DNA of 64,000 nucleotides, taken from contig CP141145.1 in assembly GCA_035235625.1 (NCBI GenBank), forward strand, positions 9,610,001 to 9,674,000, in the 5' to 3' direction. Under the pieces are notes generated by a model. The model made no database searches. It worked only from the letters and a program-made list of their open reading frames with translations, and had not been told where the DNA came from. The stretch comes from Saururus chinensis. Lineage: Eukaryota; Streptophyta; Magnoliopsida; Piperales; Saururaceae. This document shows, piece after piece, positions 5,998 to 15,515 of this stretch (the first letter of the stretch is position 1; each line of letters opens with the position of its first letter). The translations under genes and the position numbers were made by a program.

Positions 5998-8900
5998 TTA
6001 ACCAGTAAACTGATGGCAGTCAATTCCTTTCAAAGTGAAAGCTGATACAAGCCTAGGGAAAAGCTTAGCAAGCATGATCTTGAAACCAGTGGAACTGTTC
6101 AGGGCATCCCCTTTCACTTGATTTCCATTTAAAGCACAACCAACAGGGGCCCCGTTCATGTACGCCTTGCAAGCCGAAAGAAATGAGTGCGAGCAATGAG
6201 CAAAATGTTCCTCCACAAGTGCCTCAAAATGCTGTCTCATTCAGAAACGCATAACAGAATAAGTGACATAAGTATCATCATAAAGTTGTTCATAGAAGTT
6301 TTATAGGTAAGCATAAGGAGCTACAACCAAGATGGAAAGTTAATCCCAGATCATCATGAAACACAATCACTAACTTCGAGAGTTGACTACAAAATCAACA
6401 AAAAACGAAGGCAAAGTTCAAAAAAGAATTCCGTCCGCGATGACAAAAAGAAGAAAATAACTGATAAGTAAAGTTTAAGTTTAATAGTAGTAAATGGAAA
6501 ACAACGATGGTTATGCTCAAAGTATTATGGAGGCCTAGATTATATAATTTTGACAGAATTGTACAGGCAATACATTTTGAAACTAACATCCTTGTACGTC
6601 ACAGGGCATCTCGCACTTTTCTACTGATTGCTATTAAAATAGAGGTCAATTCTTCCCAAACTGACATGCAATCAGAGTCAAAGGTTTTAAATTGAATAGC
6701 AGAAGCAGCGATCCATATAGTGTATGTGCCTTCCCCAAGTGTGTTCATGTGCAAATGGTGCACTGCACATGTGGTGCAGAGTTCGTGTTATAGATATAAA
6801 TGTTAGCTCCTTCACTAACAGCTTAAGCTTATACGAGAAGCAGTTAACTTACATTTTCAAGGTCATTTGGATTCTCAAGAAATTAGTAGCATACCTTTGG
6901 TGGCTTCTGAAGCAGGTACAACATAGATTTGCAAGAAAGAAGAAAAGCATTCTCATTATAAGCAGTTGAATTCCTATCCCCTTCCACTCCTCCAATATGT
7001 TTATCATACCCAGCCTCATTAAAGTAGGGCTTTTCATTCAGCACAAGTGCCTGGAGAGAAAGCAGAACTTGAAGAACAGTGGAATTCTCTGGATTCCACA
7101 CCTCGCTGCCAGAGCCTGTCCAAGTGTTGAGAAGGCTGAGACAAACCTTTCCTGACTCATACAAATTTGGATTTAACCGAAGCCCACCAGAGTAATAATG
7201 CACCATCTGCAGAGAGTTTAAACCAAAATCTGGATTACTTCACTATATCCAATCTATCTCTACTAAAAAGAATCCCTATCCAATTATATGACAAACTTGA
7301 AAATAAATTTAAACTTTCACAATGATCACAAAACTGAAACACTCATTTGACATATTTTTCAACACAAAAATTTCGGTTTTAACAAGTGCCAATTTTATTA
7401 GATTTGGTGCATGGTTTGTCCATCTATTTTTGCAGGTTCTTGGATAAGCAAAACAGAGAAGTCCTTTATACGAAAAGACATGCAAAAATGTACCATAAAT
7501 TTGTACGAAAACCACTGTAGTTTAATCACTAGTAACTTCAGTAACCAAAGAGCACACAGTCAGAAATCAATGCAACTTTTCAAGGTGAGTTAACTCTAGG
7601 AAAGGTGAAGCCTTTCCTGAGACCATAAAATGCAACTTTTAGGTAAACCCCCAAGCAAAAGCCCTTGTTCCAAGATCGACTGAAATGCACCATGGAGGGT
7701 AAATTTATAAACATAAGTATACTTACAGGAGGCTCATTTGGATAGTCTGGAGGAAAGGTGATATCAAAGAAAAAGAGCCCATCATGATAAGGGGTTCCAG
7801 GAGCACCAACTATAGCTGCCCTCATTAGATCCATCCTTTCCTCAGAAACTCTTACAAAAATACTATCTGTAACATTTGGATGATAAATACCGAGTTTAGA
7901 ACTAGATAAAATTTTTATTTAAAAATACTGCTCAGCACCCATACTAGAATAACTAGAAAATGCAAAGAGACTACAAATATGAATTATCAAAAATGAAAAA
8001 TAAGATAAAGCCATTATGCGAACTACTTGGATGTACACGATTGCTTTTAATGAATTTGTGTTGTAGACAGTCTCTCCAAATGGTGCATGGCTTAACGCAA
8101 AGACAACATAAAGACCATGTTGAAGAGATTTGAATAACAATTGGAAGATCCTAGGAAGCATGGACATGCCAAAAGTATCCATATCATACCCGTGTCCGCA
8201 TTGGATTCAGCTGCATGTGTCCTACTCCTACCTTTCATATCAAACACCAACTATAAATTACTTCATCAAATATTCTCTAAGGTAAACATAACTTGAAGTG
8301 TGCTCAAATGATCAAGTAGAACTGTTACAAACGTATATAACACACTTTGTGGAATAACTCTGCCTGAAAAAATGGGGCATTTGTAACTACATTTCAGAAA
8401 TATAGCTACATATTTCATTCTAATTAAGATTTTAATACAAGAACTAACCTAAAATATATAAAAATAATATTTTTAATATATGTGCCCCCCAGTACAAAAT
8501 TGCCATATTGCTGTACCCATGTCCTGTATCCGCATTCGTGCTTCCTTGAGAAGATCTCAATATGGAGAAATCTTAGGTGTAAAATTTTTCTGAATGATCC
8601 CGGTCCTTCCTTCATATTCATATTCTGATCTAAAAGTTCACTTCAACCAACCAGATCAAAACAAAAGCATCCGCACAAACAAGGACAAAACCAGGATCTC
8701 ATCCCATGGGGGGGCAATCGGCATTTGGTTACTGGTTCGGGAAGAAGATGGAGGGTGAAGGAAATTGGAGAAGTAGGGCATATAATAAAAAAAATGAAGA
8801 AAATCGGTAGGCCATGCGCCCCCCCCCCCCAGTTTCACAATGTAGTTCCGTCCATGCACACAAAAGCATTTCGCATTCCAGGCTTCCACTATATTCACAT

Positions 8901-11900
8901 CCCCCATGTTGGGCTTAGTATAAACGAAAGAGACTTTAAAGATGTCAACTTACAAACAACCAACTAGAAAATGTGTATTAACTAAAGATGTTATGACTGG
9001 ACATCTCCTTGTTTGGCAACCGAATTGAGAACAATAACATTATCACAGATAAAGCTACAATAGCTAATGTAGTAAGCAATTAAATGATAATAGAAGAAAT
9101 GAAGAACAACTCAAGAATTCATTACAACAGAAAACAAAACATATACAGAAAAAGAGAGAACAAACTAACCAGGAAGATTTTCCTCCAGGATGCTCCACTC
9201 GTGGCGCACCTTCCTCAGCCAAACTCTCTTCACCTGCAAATCAAAAAAGCAAATATAGCCCTTTTTTTACAGAAGTGCAAGTCATCAACCCTAAGACAAG
9301 GAAATCCTTCTTACCTGGGACATTACCAACTCCTTGCACTTATTCTTAGCAAAATGATGATCAGAGAAATCAAAAATTGTATCAAATTGCTTGAATTTTC
9401 CTGATTTCATAATACCATCTTCAGTGCCAAGCTCCAACTTTTCTCTACTATCATCCTCTGGCGGATTCGAATTTGATAGTTTCACCAGCTCTAAGTCATC
9501 TCCGACAAATGATATTTGATCATAGGGAAGAGAGCTTTTACTAGGATTACTTAAACGAGTGGTCTTAGTAAAGCCTTGTGTCAGCGTGGAACTACAGGAG
9601 CCAAACAGACTGGAAGCGATGCTCCTAAAATATCCAAAAGCTACTCGAGGAAGAGATAGTGCAGTAGTTTCCCACAGATCTTTATGACAGTAAGCACCAA
9701 AACCGCTGACCTCTTCCTCCTGCACATCTTAATGAAGAAAAAATTAACACTTAACACACATGCGCGCGCGCGCGCACACACACACACAAAAGAGAGGGGA
9801 GTCTTCACATTTTCCATCTTAGGACATGTCTGCTTAGGTTGGTTAAGCATTTCTCCAGATGCAAAGTCCTCAATATTTTCTGCATCAACTTCGGAAGCTG
9901 AAACCTGATCTTCAAATCTATCAATACCAACTATCTCGGATGGGTTAACCTGGTACAAAAAACAAAAATATGACAAAGATATAGCATATTTTCTTCCATC
10001 TTTTGAGGTGATAACCCAGCTTCCAAATATGGGTGGTGCATGGGTACTACAAAATAAGTATGTCTTACTGTACAAATTTAACATCTGTTAACAAAGTGAA
10101 TATTAGGCTCAAAAAGTTTAGACTATTTTACTCTTATTATACCAGACCACTAAACAATTAGACAAAACAAATAAAAGATATGCAAATAGTGTGAACAACT
10201 TCAAAAATTAGGTTCTGACCTAAAAAGGTTCTAGCCAATTGGCCAAATGTTTGGAACCTTATGCAAGAAATGGCATGGATTGAGATAGCATAAAACTATG
10301 ACAAATATATATATATATAGATAAATAGATATATATATAATGAAAAGTTTGTACGGTCCAGGGTCACACACATCAGCCTGTCTGGGCATGATGAGTAGTC
10401 GGATCAAGATTCGACCACAGTGGAGGCAGAAAACCAATCAGCCTTATGAGTAATGTCTGTCTGCCGATGATGCCCTGGCTAATGCTGACGCGCATGAACC
10501 CGGACTCATCCAAATGGGAATATATATATATATATAACAAAGTAACATTTTAGAAAAACATGACAGTATGCTAAGTTAAGCCTACAGTTAGTAATCATTT
10601 AAATAACCAAAGAGCAAGAAGATAATCTAATGAACAGATAATGAAATAAAGAATACAGCCATCAAGTATTAGATTACACACCTTGGAACTGAAGCCACTT
10701 GCCCATTTGACCTGAACCCCTCCATCAGGACGACCAGTGACAATGCCAATACAAGACAAATAGGCACTGGAATATTTCTCTGAATCAGTTCCCTTATGCA
10801 TGTTTTTCTCTCCCACTAGAAAACATGAACCAATATTCGTGTTGGATAACTTTGTATCTCCGTCAAGTTGTGTTTCCCCAAGAACAACATCACCAACAGA
10901 AAATGAATACTCTGGATGCTCAACCAATTCATAAGCACTCAGAGTCTCCTCCTCTGTATGTTCTTTGAAATTGGCTTCCATCCATTTAACTCGCACAGTT
11001 TGTTCCTTTGCATCCGCACCTCTCACAAACCCCACACGTTGGAACATTACATCATTTGAATCATCAGATGTTCCTTTCTGTATTACAAACTGTCCAGGCC
11101 AAAAGTCATTGTCACCAACATTCTTTACTGGAGTCAGTGCTTGGGAATCTAAGTGAAAAGAAAAGCTACCATCCTGCCAAATGACATCAACTTCTGTCTT
11201 TACCTTTGAGATTACATATATCTTATCACTTATAGAATTCTTCCAGTGCAGCATTGCAGTTGGTCCCTGTGGAAGGGCATTCACTAACATGTTATCTTCA
11301 GCAAGCACCTGATCATGCTGAGGACCATTAGCAGGAAAAAAGCACCAATCTCCGAGCTGCCAATTAGAATAAGAAAAGCATGACAACAATGTCAAATTTG
11401 TTGGACTTTGTAAAGTAGGGGGAGTAGGCATTTTGTGGTCGTAACCACCAAGTGCAGAAGTAATCCAATTCACGTACACAGATCCAACTTTAACATGACA
11501 GACAACTCCTTCACGAGTTTCCTTCCATGGTCCACAGGCAAACAAATTTGAACGCTTAAGAGAGACCCGCTGACCTGGATAAAATGGATATTGTGCATCT
11601 TCAAGCACGCTTGAAAATACAGGCTCAAGTAGAATGGGATCGTCTGCTTTTATCTCACACTTGATGCCATCATCAAAGAGCACCGTGATATGATCTATTA
11701 CATTAACCACTTTTCCAAGCCATGGCCCATAAACCACATAGTCACCCAATGCAAAAGATCTGATCCTCATAAGCTTCTTACTACTCACATCCTTCACTTG
11801 TTCACCAGAGAGTGACTCTAAGTCTACAGTTATATCCACATCAACAATTTGACCCCTTTGCCCATAGGGATCCACTGAGGAGCACACAATGTCACCATGA

Positions 11901-12076
11901 GCAAACCCTCTTTCAAATGCAAGAAAATCATCGATCTTCCCAATACTCTCCTCTAAACTGGAAAGGATGCTTTGAGCATGGCCCCCGTATGTAGATTCCA
12001 GTTCATATTGATCCCCCGCACTGTTGCTTGTGTCACTGTAGCTATCCCAATCAGAGTCACTTAATATGTTTGTCAT
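5998..12076 (-). CDS. PHO2: PHO2 / UBC24, ubiquitin-conjugating E2 enzyme (7 coding exons)
   Basis: Coding exons (minus): 12076-10682, 9949-9809, 9719-9315, 9233-9170, 7866-7727, 7206-6895 and 6231-5998. All introns are GT-AG and the joined frame is open for about 896 residues, close to the 907 of Arabidopsis PHO2. The N-terminus (MTNILSDSDWDS, then SLEESIGKIDDFLAFERGF) and the KOW/SH3-like repeats of exon 12076-10682 are typical of this large E2 family. The UBC core spans about residues 650-820: GAPGTPYHDGLFFFD, then ESGKVCLSLLNTW, whose Cys (about 737) is the thioester site. In known plants PHO2 acts at endomembranes to ubiquitinate PHO1 and PHT1-pathway phosphate transporters. The start is the first Met of the conserved N-terminus, 10 nt after a 3' splice site. 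The miR399 sites upstream separate it from UBC23. No damage is visible, so the gene looks functional. Confidence 0.95.
8200..9160. other. Body of PHO2 intron 6, nothing recognised
   Basis: Most of the 1303-bp intron 9169-7867. It contains a poly-C run at 8819-8830 and AT-rich patches. No element with clear ends or a coding domain was recognised. Confidence 0.4.
9761..9788. repeat. (GC)n(AC)n microsatellite in an 89-nt PHO2 intron
   Basis: An alternating purine-pyrimidine run, a GC block followed by an AC block, fills about a third of the intron 9808-9720. It lies on the 5' splice side when read on the minus strand. Confidence 0.9.
10306..10344. repeat. AT/TAGA-rich microsatellite
   Basis: Tandem AT dinucleotides with interspersed TAGATA units inside PHO2 intron 10681-9950. 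Confidence 0.7.
10345..10516. repeat. Unclassified insertion-like segment in a PHO2 intron
   Basis: A more GC-rich block bounded on both sides by (AT)n runs inside intron 10681-9950. It shares the 14-mer CATGAACCCGGACT with 14990-15003. It could be a SINE-like insertion, but I could not define A and B boxes or a target duplication. Confidence 0.3.
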
Positions 12077-12217
12077 TTGAAATACCTATGTGAAATCATT
12101 ATTCAGTAATAAAATTCATTAACTAAACTCTAAGAAAATAAATAAAAATATCAGAAACAATTGTCTTCTCATCTTACGATTGAAGCGTGTGAGTCCACCA
12201 CAACAGTATATAGTATG

Positions 12218-12262
12218 TCAAATAGAAACCTCCAGAATAAAGCCACAAGTTGCAATATACAT
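12218..12262 (-). CDS. uORF, 14 codons, in the PHO2 5' UTR
   Basis: ATG at 12262, TGA at 12220-12218, in the same exon as the miR399 sites but downstream of the array. Short and with no recognised conserved peptide. Whether it is translated is unknown. Confidence 0.3.
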   Translation of the reverse strand: MYIATCGFILEVSI

Positions 12263-12373
12263 ATATTGTATCTGGAATCAAGAGAAGTGCTCAAGACTAA
12301 GCCTTCCACCAGCAGAAAATGGAGATGTGATTCGAATTAAGTGATGTCCAGCAGACGTGCTCTTTATAGAACT

Positions 12374-12394
12374 TCACAAGGGAGATTTTGCCAG
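12374..12394 (-). promoter_or_regulatory. Decayed miR399 target site (unit 1)
   Basis: Read on the plus strand this matches the miR399 sequence at about 16 of 21 positions, with the core GGAGATTT kept. It is in phase with the ~50-nt array. Function is doubtful. Confidence 0.4.
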
Positions 12395-12419
12395 TAAATG
12401 CAAGGAACTTCGATGCTTC

Positions 12420-12440
12420 TTCCAACAGATATTTCAAGTA
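12420..12440 (-). promoter_or_regulatory. Relic of a miR399 target site (unit 2)
   Basis: Only about half the positions match miR399, but it sits 46 nt from unit 1 and 44 nt from unit 3, which is where the array predicts a unit. Probably non-functional. Confidence 0.2.
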
Positions 12441-12463
12441 GAAGCAATTGTTTCAGATAAATT

Positions 12464-12484
12464 TGCCAAAGGAGATTTGCCCTA
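12464..12484 (-). promoter_or_regulatory. miR399 target site (unit 3, near perfect)
   Basis: The plus strand reads TGCCAAAGGAGATTTGCCC followed by TA, identical to the miR399 core, so the minus-strand PHO2 transcript is complementary to miR399. In known plants such sites drive miR399-guided cleavage and repression of PHO2 under phosphate starvation. Confidence 0.93.
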
Positions 12485-12520
12485 ATAAAGCCAAAGTTCA
12501 ATTTTTTATTTTTATTTTTT

Positions 12521-12541
12521 TGCCAAAGGAGAATTGCCCTT
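12521..12541 (-). promoter_or_regulatory. miR399 target site (unit 4, near perfect)
   Basis: TGCCAAAGGAGAATTGCCC on the plus strand: one central difference from the ATTTG form, matching the variation among miR399 isoforms (ATTTG or AGTTG). It is 57 nt from unit 3. Confidence 0.9.
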
Positions 12542-12573
12542 AATACAACAAAATTCTTGGTGTATTGTGGGTT

Positions 12574-12594
12574 TGCCAAAGGAGATTTGCCCTT
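12574..12594 (-). promoter_or_regulatory. miR399 target site (unit 5, near perfect)
   Basis: TGCCAAAGGAGATTTGCCC, then TT. The 3' flank CTTAATACAACAAAATTC is shared exactly with unit 4, showing that these two units arose by a 53-bp tandem duplication. Confidence 0.93.
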
Positions 12595-12607
12595 AATACA
12601 ACAAAAT

Positions 12608-12673
12608 TCAAACAAGTAGTCTATTGCCAAAGGAGATTTGCCCAGAAGAAGCAAGAGTAGGAAATATATGCAT
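12608..12673 (-). CDS. uORF, 21 codons, spanning miR399 site 6
   Basis: ATG at 12673, TGA at 12610-12608. Its frame passes through the perfect miR399 site (12645-12625), so ribosomes on it would run through the RISC target. No family was recognised. Confidence 0.35.
   Translation of the reverse strand: MHIFPTLASSGQISFGNRLLV
12625..12645 (-). promoter_or_regulatory. miR399 target site (unit 6, perfect match)
   Basis: TGCCAAAGGAGATTTGCCC followed by AG, a full-length match to the common plant miR399 form. It lies inside the 21-codon uORF at 12673-12608. Confidence 0.94.
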
Positions 12674-12679
12674 ATTGTT

Positions 12680-12700
12680 GTATCCAGGAGACTTGTCAGA
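12680..12700 (-). promoter_or_regulatory. Relic of a miR399 target site (unit 7)
   Basis: Only the GGAGA core and a few flanking positions survive, but it is 55 nt after unit 6 and 49 nt before unit 8. Probably inactive. Confidence 0.2.
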
Positions 12701-12715
12701 AAAAGACTGTTTTAA

Positions 12716-12862
12716 CTATAAATTAAACTGCCAAAGGTGATGTTCCCGGAGAGCTAAACATTTTGACAGCCAAAAGAGATATGCCTCCTCACAACCATAT
12801 ATATGGTGTTGCAGAACCAAGGATGTCAGAGAGGTCAATGATGAAGACAATTGTGTTGTCAT
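12716..12862 (-). CDS. uORF, 48 codons, spanning miR399 sites 8 and 9
   Basis: The first ATG of the 5' UTR exon, 3 nt after the predicted splice junction. It begins MTTQLSSSLTSL and ends at TAG 12718-12716. It covers two weaker miR399 sites. The peptide has no recognised motif. As the 5'-most ATG in this exon it would be the first met by scanning ribosomes unless exon 1 holds others. Confidence 0.4.
   Translation of the reverse strand: MTTQLSSSLTSLTSLVLQHHIYGCEEAYLFWLSKCLALREHHLWQFNL
12729..12749 (-). promoter_or_regulatory. miR399 target site (unit 8, intermediate)
   Basis: TGCCAAAGGTGATGTTCCCGG keeps the 5' seed-pairing half of miR399 but differs in the middle and 3' half, so it may bind weakly or without cleavage. 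It lies inside the 48-codon uORF. Confidence 0.6.
12768..12788 (-). promoter_or_regulatory. miR399 target site (unit 9, intermediate)
   Basis: AGCCAAAAGAGATATGCCT is miR399-like with several mismatches. It is the unit closest to the 5' end of the exon and also lies inside the 48-codon uORF. Confidence 0.45.
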
Positions 12863-12865
12863 TCC

Positions 12866-14928
12866 CTGTTAAATACATAAAGAAACATAACATCAGTATC
12901 AACAACAGGTTTTACCTTTAAGATGGTACTGACTAGGAAGCACTGCAACTTCTGTACTTTTAACTTATTTAAGACAATCTACACCTTTTTACCAAAACCA
13001 AAGTAAATTTTGAAAGCCTAATTTAAGGTTTTCATCTATAATGAGGTCGATAAGTGTGAAGGATACTAAAAATCACAATAGAAAACCCACATAAGAAAAT
13101 TTAGAGGTAGCTCCTGTAGATGGTAAACTGAAAGGCCACAAGAGAAAATTTGGTAAGTGGCAAATGAGACAAGCAACAGCTTCCCTTACGAAATGTGGCA
13201 GTGGCTTGTACATGCTCATAGACAAAGGAGACAAGATACAAGGAAGAATACTAAGTGGAGATAGTGAAAGAGAGTAAAAGATGTATAAACTGGGAGTTGA
13301 AATGGTCAATATTAGAGCTGAAGAGGTTAATACAACGACCATGATTATAAGTTCCAACACCATGCAATACATACAGGTACAACTGTCACCAGTTGGGACC
13401 AGGAAAAAACTATGATGGCAATTGAATCTTAGTTTCTGCAAAAAAACAAAATCGATTCTGTTGATAAGGAATTACACTTAACATCAGTCCAATTAGTATA
13501 GCTTCAGTTCCAGAGAAAAAATTGCCTTCTTCAGCAAGAAAGGGTCCACGAAATGTGATTCTGTGCAAGGGAAAAGAAACAAACTTCCATATTTTCTATT
13601 CTTTCTTTGTTTTCTTGAAACAGAAAATGAGTATCTTAAAAATTTTAAAAGGCTTAAAATATGATCTAGATTTGTTTTCTGGAGAAAATAAGACGTCCCA
13701 TTAAATAATTCTAAAACAAGTCAACATCATGAACTTTTCCATCTTAACAAATAAAGAGCATATAACTTTTCCTTTGTAAGTACATAACCAATATGGCAAA
13801 CATATTATATCTTTACTCATGTTTGTGTTGTTCACATGGTAAGCCATGAACATATAGCAGAACATTGTGCTAAACCAAATTTAATAAAAAAATTATCCTA
13901 TATATCCACTTCTGCAATTGGATCATCATCATTTCTGCCAAAAGGCACTTTGAGTTATCCAGCACAAACTAATATTGTTACAAATAAATCAGAGGTAGTT
14001 AAACAAAAACCACAAACCTATACTAAATCCCATCACACAGATTATTCAGAATTTACTTGAGCAGAATGCATAACAACTAAACAAGGCCAAGCATAGACTC
14101 AGGAAAAAGTCCCCTCGATATTTATATCTGCTAAATGAAAAAACAATAAAGTTTAGAAGAAAAACTGCCAAACAATTCCTATGTAAGGAAAAAAAAAACG
14201 AACTGTCCTCATTTCTATGCTTTTTTCAGTTTTATTACCAAAAATTATTCATATATTCAATAGTTCAAAAAGGTGTTTGAGCTTTGTTTTCTGCAGAAAA
14301 TAAGATCTATCTTATTAAGTAACTCCAAAAGAAGTCACTATCATGAACTTGTCCATCTTAACAGATAAGAGAAATATAAGCATTTCCTTTGTAACTTTTT
14401 TTTTATTTTTTTATTTAGATTGGCAAGACTCACACAACCTCCACTATTGGCCACGGGGATTAGACCCTGGGATTATCCCTTAACTCAGAGAAATCCAACC
14501 AGCACAACCAAACGCTTAATTAGCTCTTCGAAAGTATATTACTTATGCACCAAAGAAATTGTAAGATTGCAATTCACATGAGACTATATAAACCCTAAGA
14601 AAATGAATAAAAGTAAGTTAGAATATCAATTTTCATGTTCCTGTTAAACAAGGAATACTCGAAAACTTTTATCAAACCAAATTAATGAAGAAAATCCTCC
14701 TATATAACCCACTTCATTCAAGCGCAGTATTTTTGTCAAAGGGCAGTTTGAGTTATTCAGCAGCTGACAAAGATGTTGCAATCAAATACACCCAAGAAAA
14801 GCAAAGAACTGAAAAAAAAAAACATACACCCATGAAAAAGTCTCCTCAAAACGTAGTATCCATCTCAGATTCGTATCTCCTGAATAGCAATATACAAAAA
14901 CGAAATCTAAAAAGACCAGTGAACTCAC
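12866..14928 (-). other. PHO2 5' UTR intron 1 (inferred)
   Basis: Inferred between a strong GTGAGT donor at 14928 and the CAG acceptor at 12866. It contains internally duplicated sequence: 13683-14060 resembles 14285-14400 together with 14640-14860. No coding domain or defined transposon ends were seen. Confidence 0.45.
14705..14860. repeat. Direct repeat, copy in intron 1
   Basis: About 150 bp nearly identical to 15364-15515 (shared landmarks AAGCGCAGTATTTTTGTCAA and CATACACCC). The two copies bracket the likely first exon. A more diverged copy is at about 13880-13960. Confidence 0.9.
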
Positions 14929-15235
14929 CCCTCCCTCTCCTCATTAGATGAACGATGGAATTAAAAACTCATGCGAATTTGGCCACGCCCATGAACCCGG
15001 ACTAATTCTCTCTAGCTCTGCTCGTCTTTCTCCGCCTCTCTGACAACTGTAAGGGAAGACACCTCTGCATCTAGAGAGGGAAGTTCCCTCCCTATACACC
15101 ATCCGTCAACGCTCCCCTCTCCCCTTTCCCCATACCATCTTCTCAGTTATTCCAATTCGCCTCTGTCTATTCTCAGTGGGCGAACTTGGATAGCAATGGG
15201 ATGAAAGGAAGCAAAGTTGCAGGCGGTGGTGGAGA

Positions 15236-15269
<34 letters not shown>

Positions 15270-15300
15270 GTTCAATCCACATATGACTGTTGAAACAACT
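14929..15300 (-). other. PHO2: Probable PHO2 first exon and transcription start region
   Basis: On the minus strand this has the CT-rich leader typical of plant 5' UTRs and ends at a GTGAGT donor. The start is not resolved: no clear TATA box was found, and an alternative donor lies near 15064. The call rests on position, composition and splice consensus. Confidence 0.4.
15239..15267. repeat. (GA)n microsatellite near the PHO2 start
   Basis: About 14 GA units, reading CT on the PHO2 sense strand. CT/GA tracts are common around plant transcription starts and can bind GAGA-binding BPC proteins; any role here is inference. Confidence 0.85.
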
Positions 15301-15363
15301 GTGACGCAACAGTACTCGAATTCCGTAAACACCCCTCATTAACCTTTACGCTGTATTCAAGTT

Positions 15364-15515
15364 TTAAACCCACTTCAGTCAAGCGCAGTATTTTTGTCAA
15401 AAGGCAGTTTGAGTTATTCAGCACCTGAAAAAGATGTTGCAATCAAATACACCCAAGAAAAGCGAAGAACTGAAAAAAAAAACATACACCCGTGAAAAAG
15501 TCTCCTCAAAACTTG
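15364..15515. repeat. Direct repeat, copy upstream of PHO2 exon 1
   Basis: Partner of 14705-14860, differing at only a few positions. It lies on the other side of the probable first exon, so one duplication event may have copied or bracketed promoter sequence. Confidence 0.9.

What the first reader, a model, noticed from the sequence alone, without database searches (positions are those of the whole stretch)
12374..12788. Expanded periodic miR399 target array in PHO2
Nine positions at 44-57 nt spacing (39 nt for the last) match miR399: four near-perfect in the centre, two intermediate, three decayed at array-predicted places. Arabidopsis and rice PHO2 are described with five sites. Units 4 and 5 share an 18-nt flank at 53-bp offset, showing growth by tandem duplication, so the array behaves like a minisatellite under selection that keeps central sites and lets edge sites decay. 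Spacing near 50 nt might also let neighbouring RISCs act together (inference).
Basis: partly seen in the sequence, partly recalled or inferred. Interest (0 to 1): 0.85.

Follow-up and report, generated by a model that had tools for sequence, protein, structure and literature searches.

The report
Ordinary miR399 target array in PHO2
This is a plant's normal phosphate-control switch: a run of microRNA399 target sites in front of the PHO2 gene, of a kind already described in many plants, with about six recognisable sites rather than nine.

Summary
The array is real. It lies on the minus strand, upstream of the start codon of a PHO2/UBC24 gene in an unnamed 516-Mb plant genome. Four sites are near-perfect (12464, 12521, 12574, 12625), one is moderate (12729) and one weak (12768). 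The pairing rule used for common bean PHO2 gives six sites at a cutoff of 5; a weighted rule gives five. In the papers I saw, PHO2 genes have four to six sites, usually five. Of the three "decayed" sites, 12374 beats chance (p about 0.01), 12420 is borderline and 12680 is indistinguishable from background. "Nine sites" and "expanded" are therefore not supported. A 38-nt block (37 of 38 identical) shared by the 12521 and 12574 units shows one local duplication, but the other spacers resemble each other little, so "minisatellite under selection" is a weak inference. Steps of 54 nt already follow from published common bean coordinates. The genome also has seven MIR399-like hairpins (five pass Rfam's cutoff) and two exact IPS1-type decoy words. 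Most likely mechanism: ordinary AGO1-miR399 cleavage of PHO2 mRNA under phosphate starvation, inferred from other plants. A new but ordinary member of a well-known kind; interest is low.

The parts
12768..12788 (-). miR399 target site, weak (5.0 unweighted, 5.5 weighted); most 5' in the mRNA
   Evidence: gapped test p 0.003
12729..12749 (-). miR399 target site, moderate (3.5 unweighted, 4.5 weighted), A:A mismatch at miRNA position 10
12680..12700 (-). claimed decayed site; indistinguishable from background
   Evidence: p 0.14, 0.12 of segments, 0.17-0.37
12625..12645 (-). miR399 target site, near-perfect (score 1)
12574..12594 (-). miR399 target site, near-perfect (score 1); in the duplicated block
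12521..12541 (-). miR399 target site, near-perfect (score 1, to the AAU-type isoform); in the duplicated block
12464..12484 (-). miR399 target site, near-perfect (score 0.5)
12420..12440 (-). claimed decayed site; borderline at best
   Evidence: 0.12 of segments, p 0.30, 0.034-0.080 at its predicted place
12374..12394 (-). possible relic site, probably not functional (6 unweighted, 9 weighted)
   Evidence: p about 0.01
12519..12556 (-). copy 1 of the duplicated 38-nt block
   Evidence: 37 of 38 identical to 12572-12609
12572..12609 (-). copy 2 of the duplicated 38-nt block
12087..12865 (-). putative 5' UTR stretch holding the array; acceptor-like site at 12866, splicing nearer the start codon not settled
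   Evidence: splice matrices recalled; no transcript data
10679..12076 (-). PHO2/UBC24 N-terminal coding stretch (466 aa, no stop) with UBE2O-type SH3-B domains
7580..7918 (-). open stretch with the first part of the ubiquitin-conjugating (UQ_con) domain
   Evidence: PF00179, E 1.2e-10
6883..7239 (-). open stretch with the second part of the UQ_con domain
   Evidence: PF00179, E 5.5e-8

Best explanation
This is the conserved miR399 target-site array in the 5' leader of PHO2 (UBC24), a ubiquitin-conjugating E2 enzyme. Under phosphate starvation, miR399 from the genome's MIR399 genes guides AGO1 to cut PHO2 mRNA, mainly at the four near-perfect sites; less PHO2 means that phosphate transporters and PHO1 are spared. 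The sites at 12729 and 12768 probably add little: 12729 has a mismatch at position 10, by the expected cut, so it may bind without being cut. One local duplication made the 12521/12574 pair. Shown here: gene identity, sites, hairpins, duplicated block. Inferred from other plants: transcription of this stretch, cleavage, physiology.
For: The six sites lie on the minus strand 388-712 nt of genomic DNA upstream of the PHO2 start codon, and PHO2 domains follow on the same strand. A whole-genome search with at most 1 mismatch finds 11 places: 4 in this array and 7 elsewhere. All 7 of those fold as hairpins with 18-20 of 21 miR399 bases paired, and 5 of the 7 pass Rfam's MIR399 cutoff; the 4 array words do not fold so (8-16 of 21 paired, -0.16 to -0.19 kcal/mol per nt against -0.41 to -0.49), so they are targets and not microRNA genes. 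Two exact IPS1-type decoy words lie on C11. The one paralogue found has no site scoring below 7 on its own strand in the 8 kb read. PHO2 of other plants carries 4-6 such sites in the leader, with cuts shown in Arabidopsis, barley, N. benthamiana and bean (passages).
Against: No RNA, small-RNA or degradome data for this plant. The leader's exons are not settled. Two of the seven hairpins (C7 and C8:27.19 Mb) do not reach Rfam's cutoff. Predicted accessibility of the four strong sites is not clearly above random placement (0.48 unpaired, p 0.17). The exact IPS1-type words are 2 of 13 hits with at most 1 mismatch, control 2.
Confidence: 0.95

Rival explanations
1. One reading: a nine-unit periodic array, larger than in other plants, that grew like a minisatellite, with selection keeping the central sites while edge sites decay.
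For: Positions fit steps of 44-57 nt; a 38-nt block is duplicated; 12374 beats chance; 12420 sits at the midpoint of its gap (p 0.034 within 3 nt); some further flank similarity (u3/u5 p 0.02, u4/u9 0.03; u1/u4 0.009 ungapped).
Against: 12680 is background and 12420 is not significant unless its place is fixed in advance. Of 21 spacer pairs only u4/u5 is strongly alike; the few others below 0.05 are not far from what 21 tests give by chance. No array with a period near 53 by TRF. Usual scoring gives 5-6 sites.
Confidence: 0.12
2. The words on the plus strand are a cluster of MIR399 genes, not target sites.
For: Each of the four words is miR399 itself in 19 of 19 bases.
Against: None of the 4 folds into a hairpin when handled like the 7 MIR399 loci; Rfam finds no MIR399 in the window; PHO2 lies just downstream in the right orientation.
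Confidence: 0.01
3. The weak sites (12729, and perhaps 12768) act as built-in decoys that bind miR399 without being cut, so that the array tunes its own sensitivity.
For: 12729 has an A:A mismatch at position 10; binding with unequal sites has been suggested to tune PHO2 in N. benthamiana (PMC6296076).
Against: No binding or cleavage data; poor sites may simply be decaying. IPS1-type decoys differ in having a 3-nt central loop (recalled).
Confidence: 0.1

Closest known systems
PHO2/UBC24 leader arrays with five miR399 sites (Arabidopsis, rice, wheat, Medicago, poplar)
   Same: Same gene, same microRNA, several sites in the leader upstream of the start codon.
   Different: Six sites here by the unweighted rule, five by the weighted one; four consecutive near-perfect ones. 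I had no sequences of these genes to align.
Common bean PvPHO2 (PMC3645745; abstract, passages and section 18 seen)
   Same: Sites of unequal quality (scores 0-6) and steps of 54 nt between the last three.
   Different: Five sites at 1084-1453, with larger steps (91 and 170 nt) between the first three.
Barley HvPHO2 with six sites (PMC4919326; passages seen)
   Same: Six sites in one leader exon, some poor.
   Different: Another paper counts five in barley, with cuts found at sites 2 and 5 only (PMC3878733). Step lengths were not in the passages.

Membership tests
miR399-regulated PHO2/UBC24 | UBE2O-like N-terminal domains followed by an E2 (UQ_con) domain | tested here: met
   PF23046 and PF23043 above cutoff, PF23044 below it; PF00179 in two stretches
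miR399-regulated PHO2/UBC24 | Several miR399-complementary sites on the sense strand upstream of the start codon | tested here: met
   Six sites by the unweighted rule, five by the weighted rule
miR399-regulated PHO2/UBC24 | Matching MIR399 genes in the same genome | tested here: met
   7 of 7 places outside the array fold as hairpins; 5 of 7 pass Rfam
miR399-regulated PHO2/UBC24 | Sites lie in an untranslated exon of the mRNA | tested here: inconclusive
   Only splice-site scoring with recalled matrices
miR399-regulated PHO2/UBC24 | miR399-guided cleavage and lower PHO2 mRNA under phosphate starvation | not testable with these tools
   Needs degradome, 5' RACE or expression data
Minisatellite / tandem array | Head-to-tail units alike over their whole length | tested here: not met
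   No period near 53 by TRF; one strongly alike spacer pair of 21

The most novel reading that the evidence does not exclude
The leader descends from an array of seven to nine units of about 52 nt that turns over by short local duplications, so that the number of sites and the identity of the strong ones shift between lineages while total miR399 sensitivity is kept: turnover of binding sites inside a microRNA target array.
Probability: 0.15. Interest if true: 0.35.

Novelty: new member of a known kind. Interest (0 to 1): 0.12.

Why it matters
It shows the sequence parts of the standard phosphate-starvation module (MIR399, PHO2, IPS1-type words) in this genome. If site turnover by duplication were shown across relatives, PHO2 would be a useful case of how microRNA target arrays evolve.

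Tried and rejected
Tandem Repeats Finder for an array of about 53 nt: none. Rfam on the window: no match at gathering scores. Related plant loci in viral contigs: none by pattern and none by protein (2 stretches matched a pattern but encode no relative), so no orthologous leader could be aligned; the genome has no relatives held. Site accessibility by folding: no clear signal. Array words as MIR399 hairpins: no.

Literature: a search for phrases such as 'six miR399 binding' or 'seven/eight/nine miR399' gave 4 papers. Only PMC4919326 (six binding sites) was looked up for this; in the others the phrases were seen as counts in a listing and may mean MIR399 genes. PHO2 genes with more than six sites worded otherwise, or outside this open-access library, are not excluded. 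A search on cooperating plant miRNA sites held no paper with all six terms. A search on splice forms that escape miR399 listed 8 papers; I used only the passage of PMC10319397 already seen. Searches gave nothing further that I used.

Full report
What is there. The plus strand between 12374 and 12788 carries words nearly identical to miR399; the minus strand, which carries the PHO2 gene, therefore carries miR399 target sites. The PHO2 reading frame starts at 12076 on the minus strand. Its N-terminal stretch (466 aa, no stop) matches Pfam UBE2O domains, and further open stretches at 7580-7918 and 6883-7239 match the ubiquitin-conjugating domain. I did not build a full gene model. In the whole genome this protein stretch finds this gene and one paralogue on C11, in two pieces at 45% and 36% identity. 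In the 8 kb read around that paralogue, the best miR399-like word scores 7.0 on its own strand and 6.0 on the other, so it has no such array.

How many sites. With miR399 isoforms taken from the genome's own hairpins, pairing scores (mismatch 1, G:U 0.5, as in the common bean paper) are: 12464 0.5; 12521, 12574 and 12625 each 1; 12729 3.5; 12768 5.0; 12374 6; 12420 8; 12680 8 with a bulge and 9.5 without. With double weight at positions 2-13 they are, in the same order, 0.5, 1, 1, 1, 4.5, 5.5, 9, 11.5 and 13. A cutoff of 5 gives six sites unweighted and five weighted.

Chance. Against 45-nt segments elsewhere in the window, 0 of 399 reached 5 unweighted, 1.0% reached 6 and 12% reached 8; weighted, 0.8% of 397 reached 9, and the 5% and 10% quantiles were 11.5 and 12.5. 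The tested stretches were 33-53 nt long, so these figures are approximate. A gapped local alignment test with about 300 background segments gave p 0.003 for 12729 and 12768, 0.007 for 12374, 0.30 for 12420 and 0.14 for 12680. Fixing the place in advance as the midpoint of the gap gave p 0.034, 0.054 and 0.080 (within 3, 5 and 8 nt) for 12420 and 0.17, 0.27 and 0.37 for 12680 (9051 overlapping places). So 12374 may be a relic, 12420 is borderline and 12680 is background. None of these p-values is corrected for several tests.

Repeats. The blocks 12519-12556 and 12572-12609 are identical at 37 of 38 positions, 17 nt of it beyond the site; this is a real local duplication. Beyond it the 53-nt register is lost. 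Among 21 pairs of 34-nt flanks, u4/u5 is alike beyond all of 2000 shuffles, u3/u5 has p 0.021 and u4/u9 0.031, and the rest are 0.08 or more. An ungapped version with 30-nt flanks gave u4/u5 0.0035, u1/u4 0.009 and u3/u5 0.04 of 21 pairs on that side, and u1/u3 0.0375 of 21 on the other. TRF found no array of this period. A full minisatellite is not shown, though a worn one is not excluded.

The rest of the module. A genome search with at most one mismatch to the 19-nt word gave 11 places, 4 in this array and 7 elsewhere. All 7 fold as hairpins with the word in the 3' arm and 18-20 of 21 bases paired (best of five trial stretches each). Five of the 7 pass the Rfam MIR399 cutoff; those on C7 and at C8:27.19 Mb do not. 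The four array words, handled alike, do not form such hairpins (8-16 of 21 paired, -0.16 to -0.19 against -0.41 to -0.49 kcal/mol per nt). With up to three mismatches to the 21-nt pattern there are 98 places (20 for the reversed control); five of them are in this array, and I saw no other cluster in the listing apart from the two arms of one MIR399 hairpin on C5 (the tool calls such counts lower bounds). An IPS1-type decoy pattern gave 13 places with at most one mismatch (control 2), of which the 2 exact ones lie 5 kb apart on C11; neither matches an Rfam family.

Compared with what is known, from passages read. Five sites in Arabidopsis, their number and position said to be conserved in rice, poplar and Medicago (PMC2268993; PMC3645745). 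Five in rice (PMC9009289), in three Medicago genes (PMC10319397) and in three wheat genes (PMC4945926). Five or six in barley (PMC3878733; PMC4919326). Four in N. benthamiana (PMC6296076). Cuts: Arabidopsis mainly sites 2 and 3 in one study and 3, 4 and 5 in another (as cited); barley 2 and 5; N. benthamiana 2 and 4; bean tested at sites 1 and 3. In Arabidopsis ski2 mutants small RNAs appear 5' of the site array (PMC4678812). Common bean sites at 1084, 1175, 1345, 1399 and 1453 give steps of 91, 170, 54 and 54 nt, with scores from 0 to 6. Unequal sites, poor sites and steps near 54 nt are therefore known features. No cross-species alignment could be made.

Mechanism. Most likely ordinary AGO1-miR399 slicing at the four strong sites, lowering PHO2 in phosphate starvation; only the sequence side is shown here. 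The 12729 site has an A:A mismatch at position 10, which by the usual rule (recalled) hampers cutting. Predicted accessibility gives no clear support: 0.48 unpaired at the strong sites, 0.44 in the array spacers, 0.40 in the rest of the presumed exon, p 0.17. Splicing of the leader is not settled: an acceptor-like site lies at 12866 and weaker candidate sites lie between the array and the start codon. A Medicago paper reports that Arabidopsis also makes a shorter PHO2 transcript without the sites (PMC10319397, citing others); I could not test that here.

Verdict. It is ordinary biology, new only as an instance.

Noticed in passing
G000:C11:17860544-17860565 (-) and 17865530-17865551 (+), loci L046 and L047: Two exact IPS1/At4-type miR399 decoy words in opposite orientation, 5 kb apart; possible target-mimic genes (pattern recalled; no Rfam match).
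   Followed up: partly
G000:C5:30983661-31110265: Four MIR399 hairpins within 127 kb, a local gene cluster.
   Followed up: partly
window 13700-15512: Direct repeats at offsets of 614-731 bp upstream of the array (116 nt at 96%, 66 nt at 80%, 40 nt at 98% and 68%), in the PHO2 leader intron or promoter.
   Followed up: no
window 12862, 12798, 12761, 12673 (-): Upstream ATGs with short reading frames (12-48 codons) just before or inside the array; eight ATGs in all in the presumed leader.
   Followed up: no
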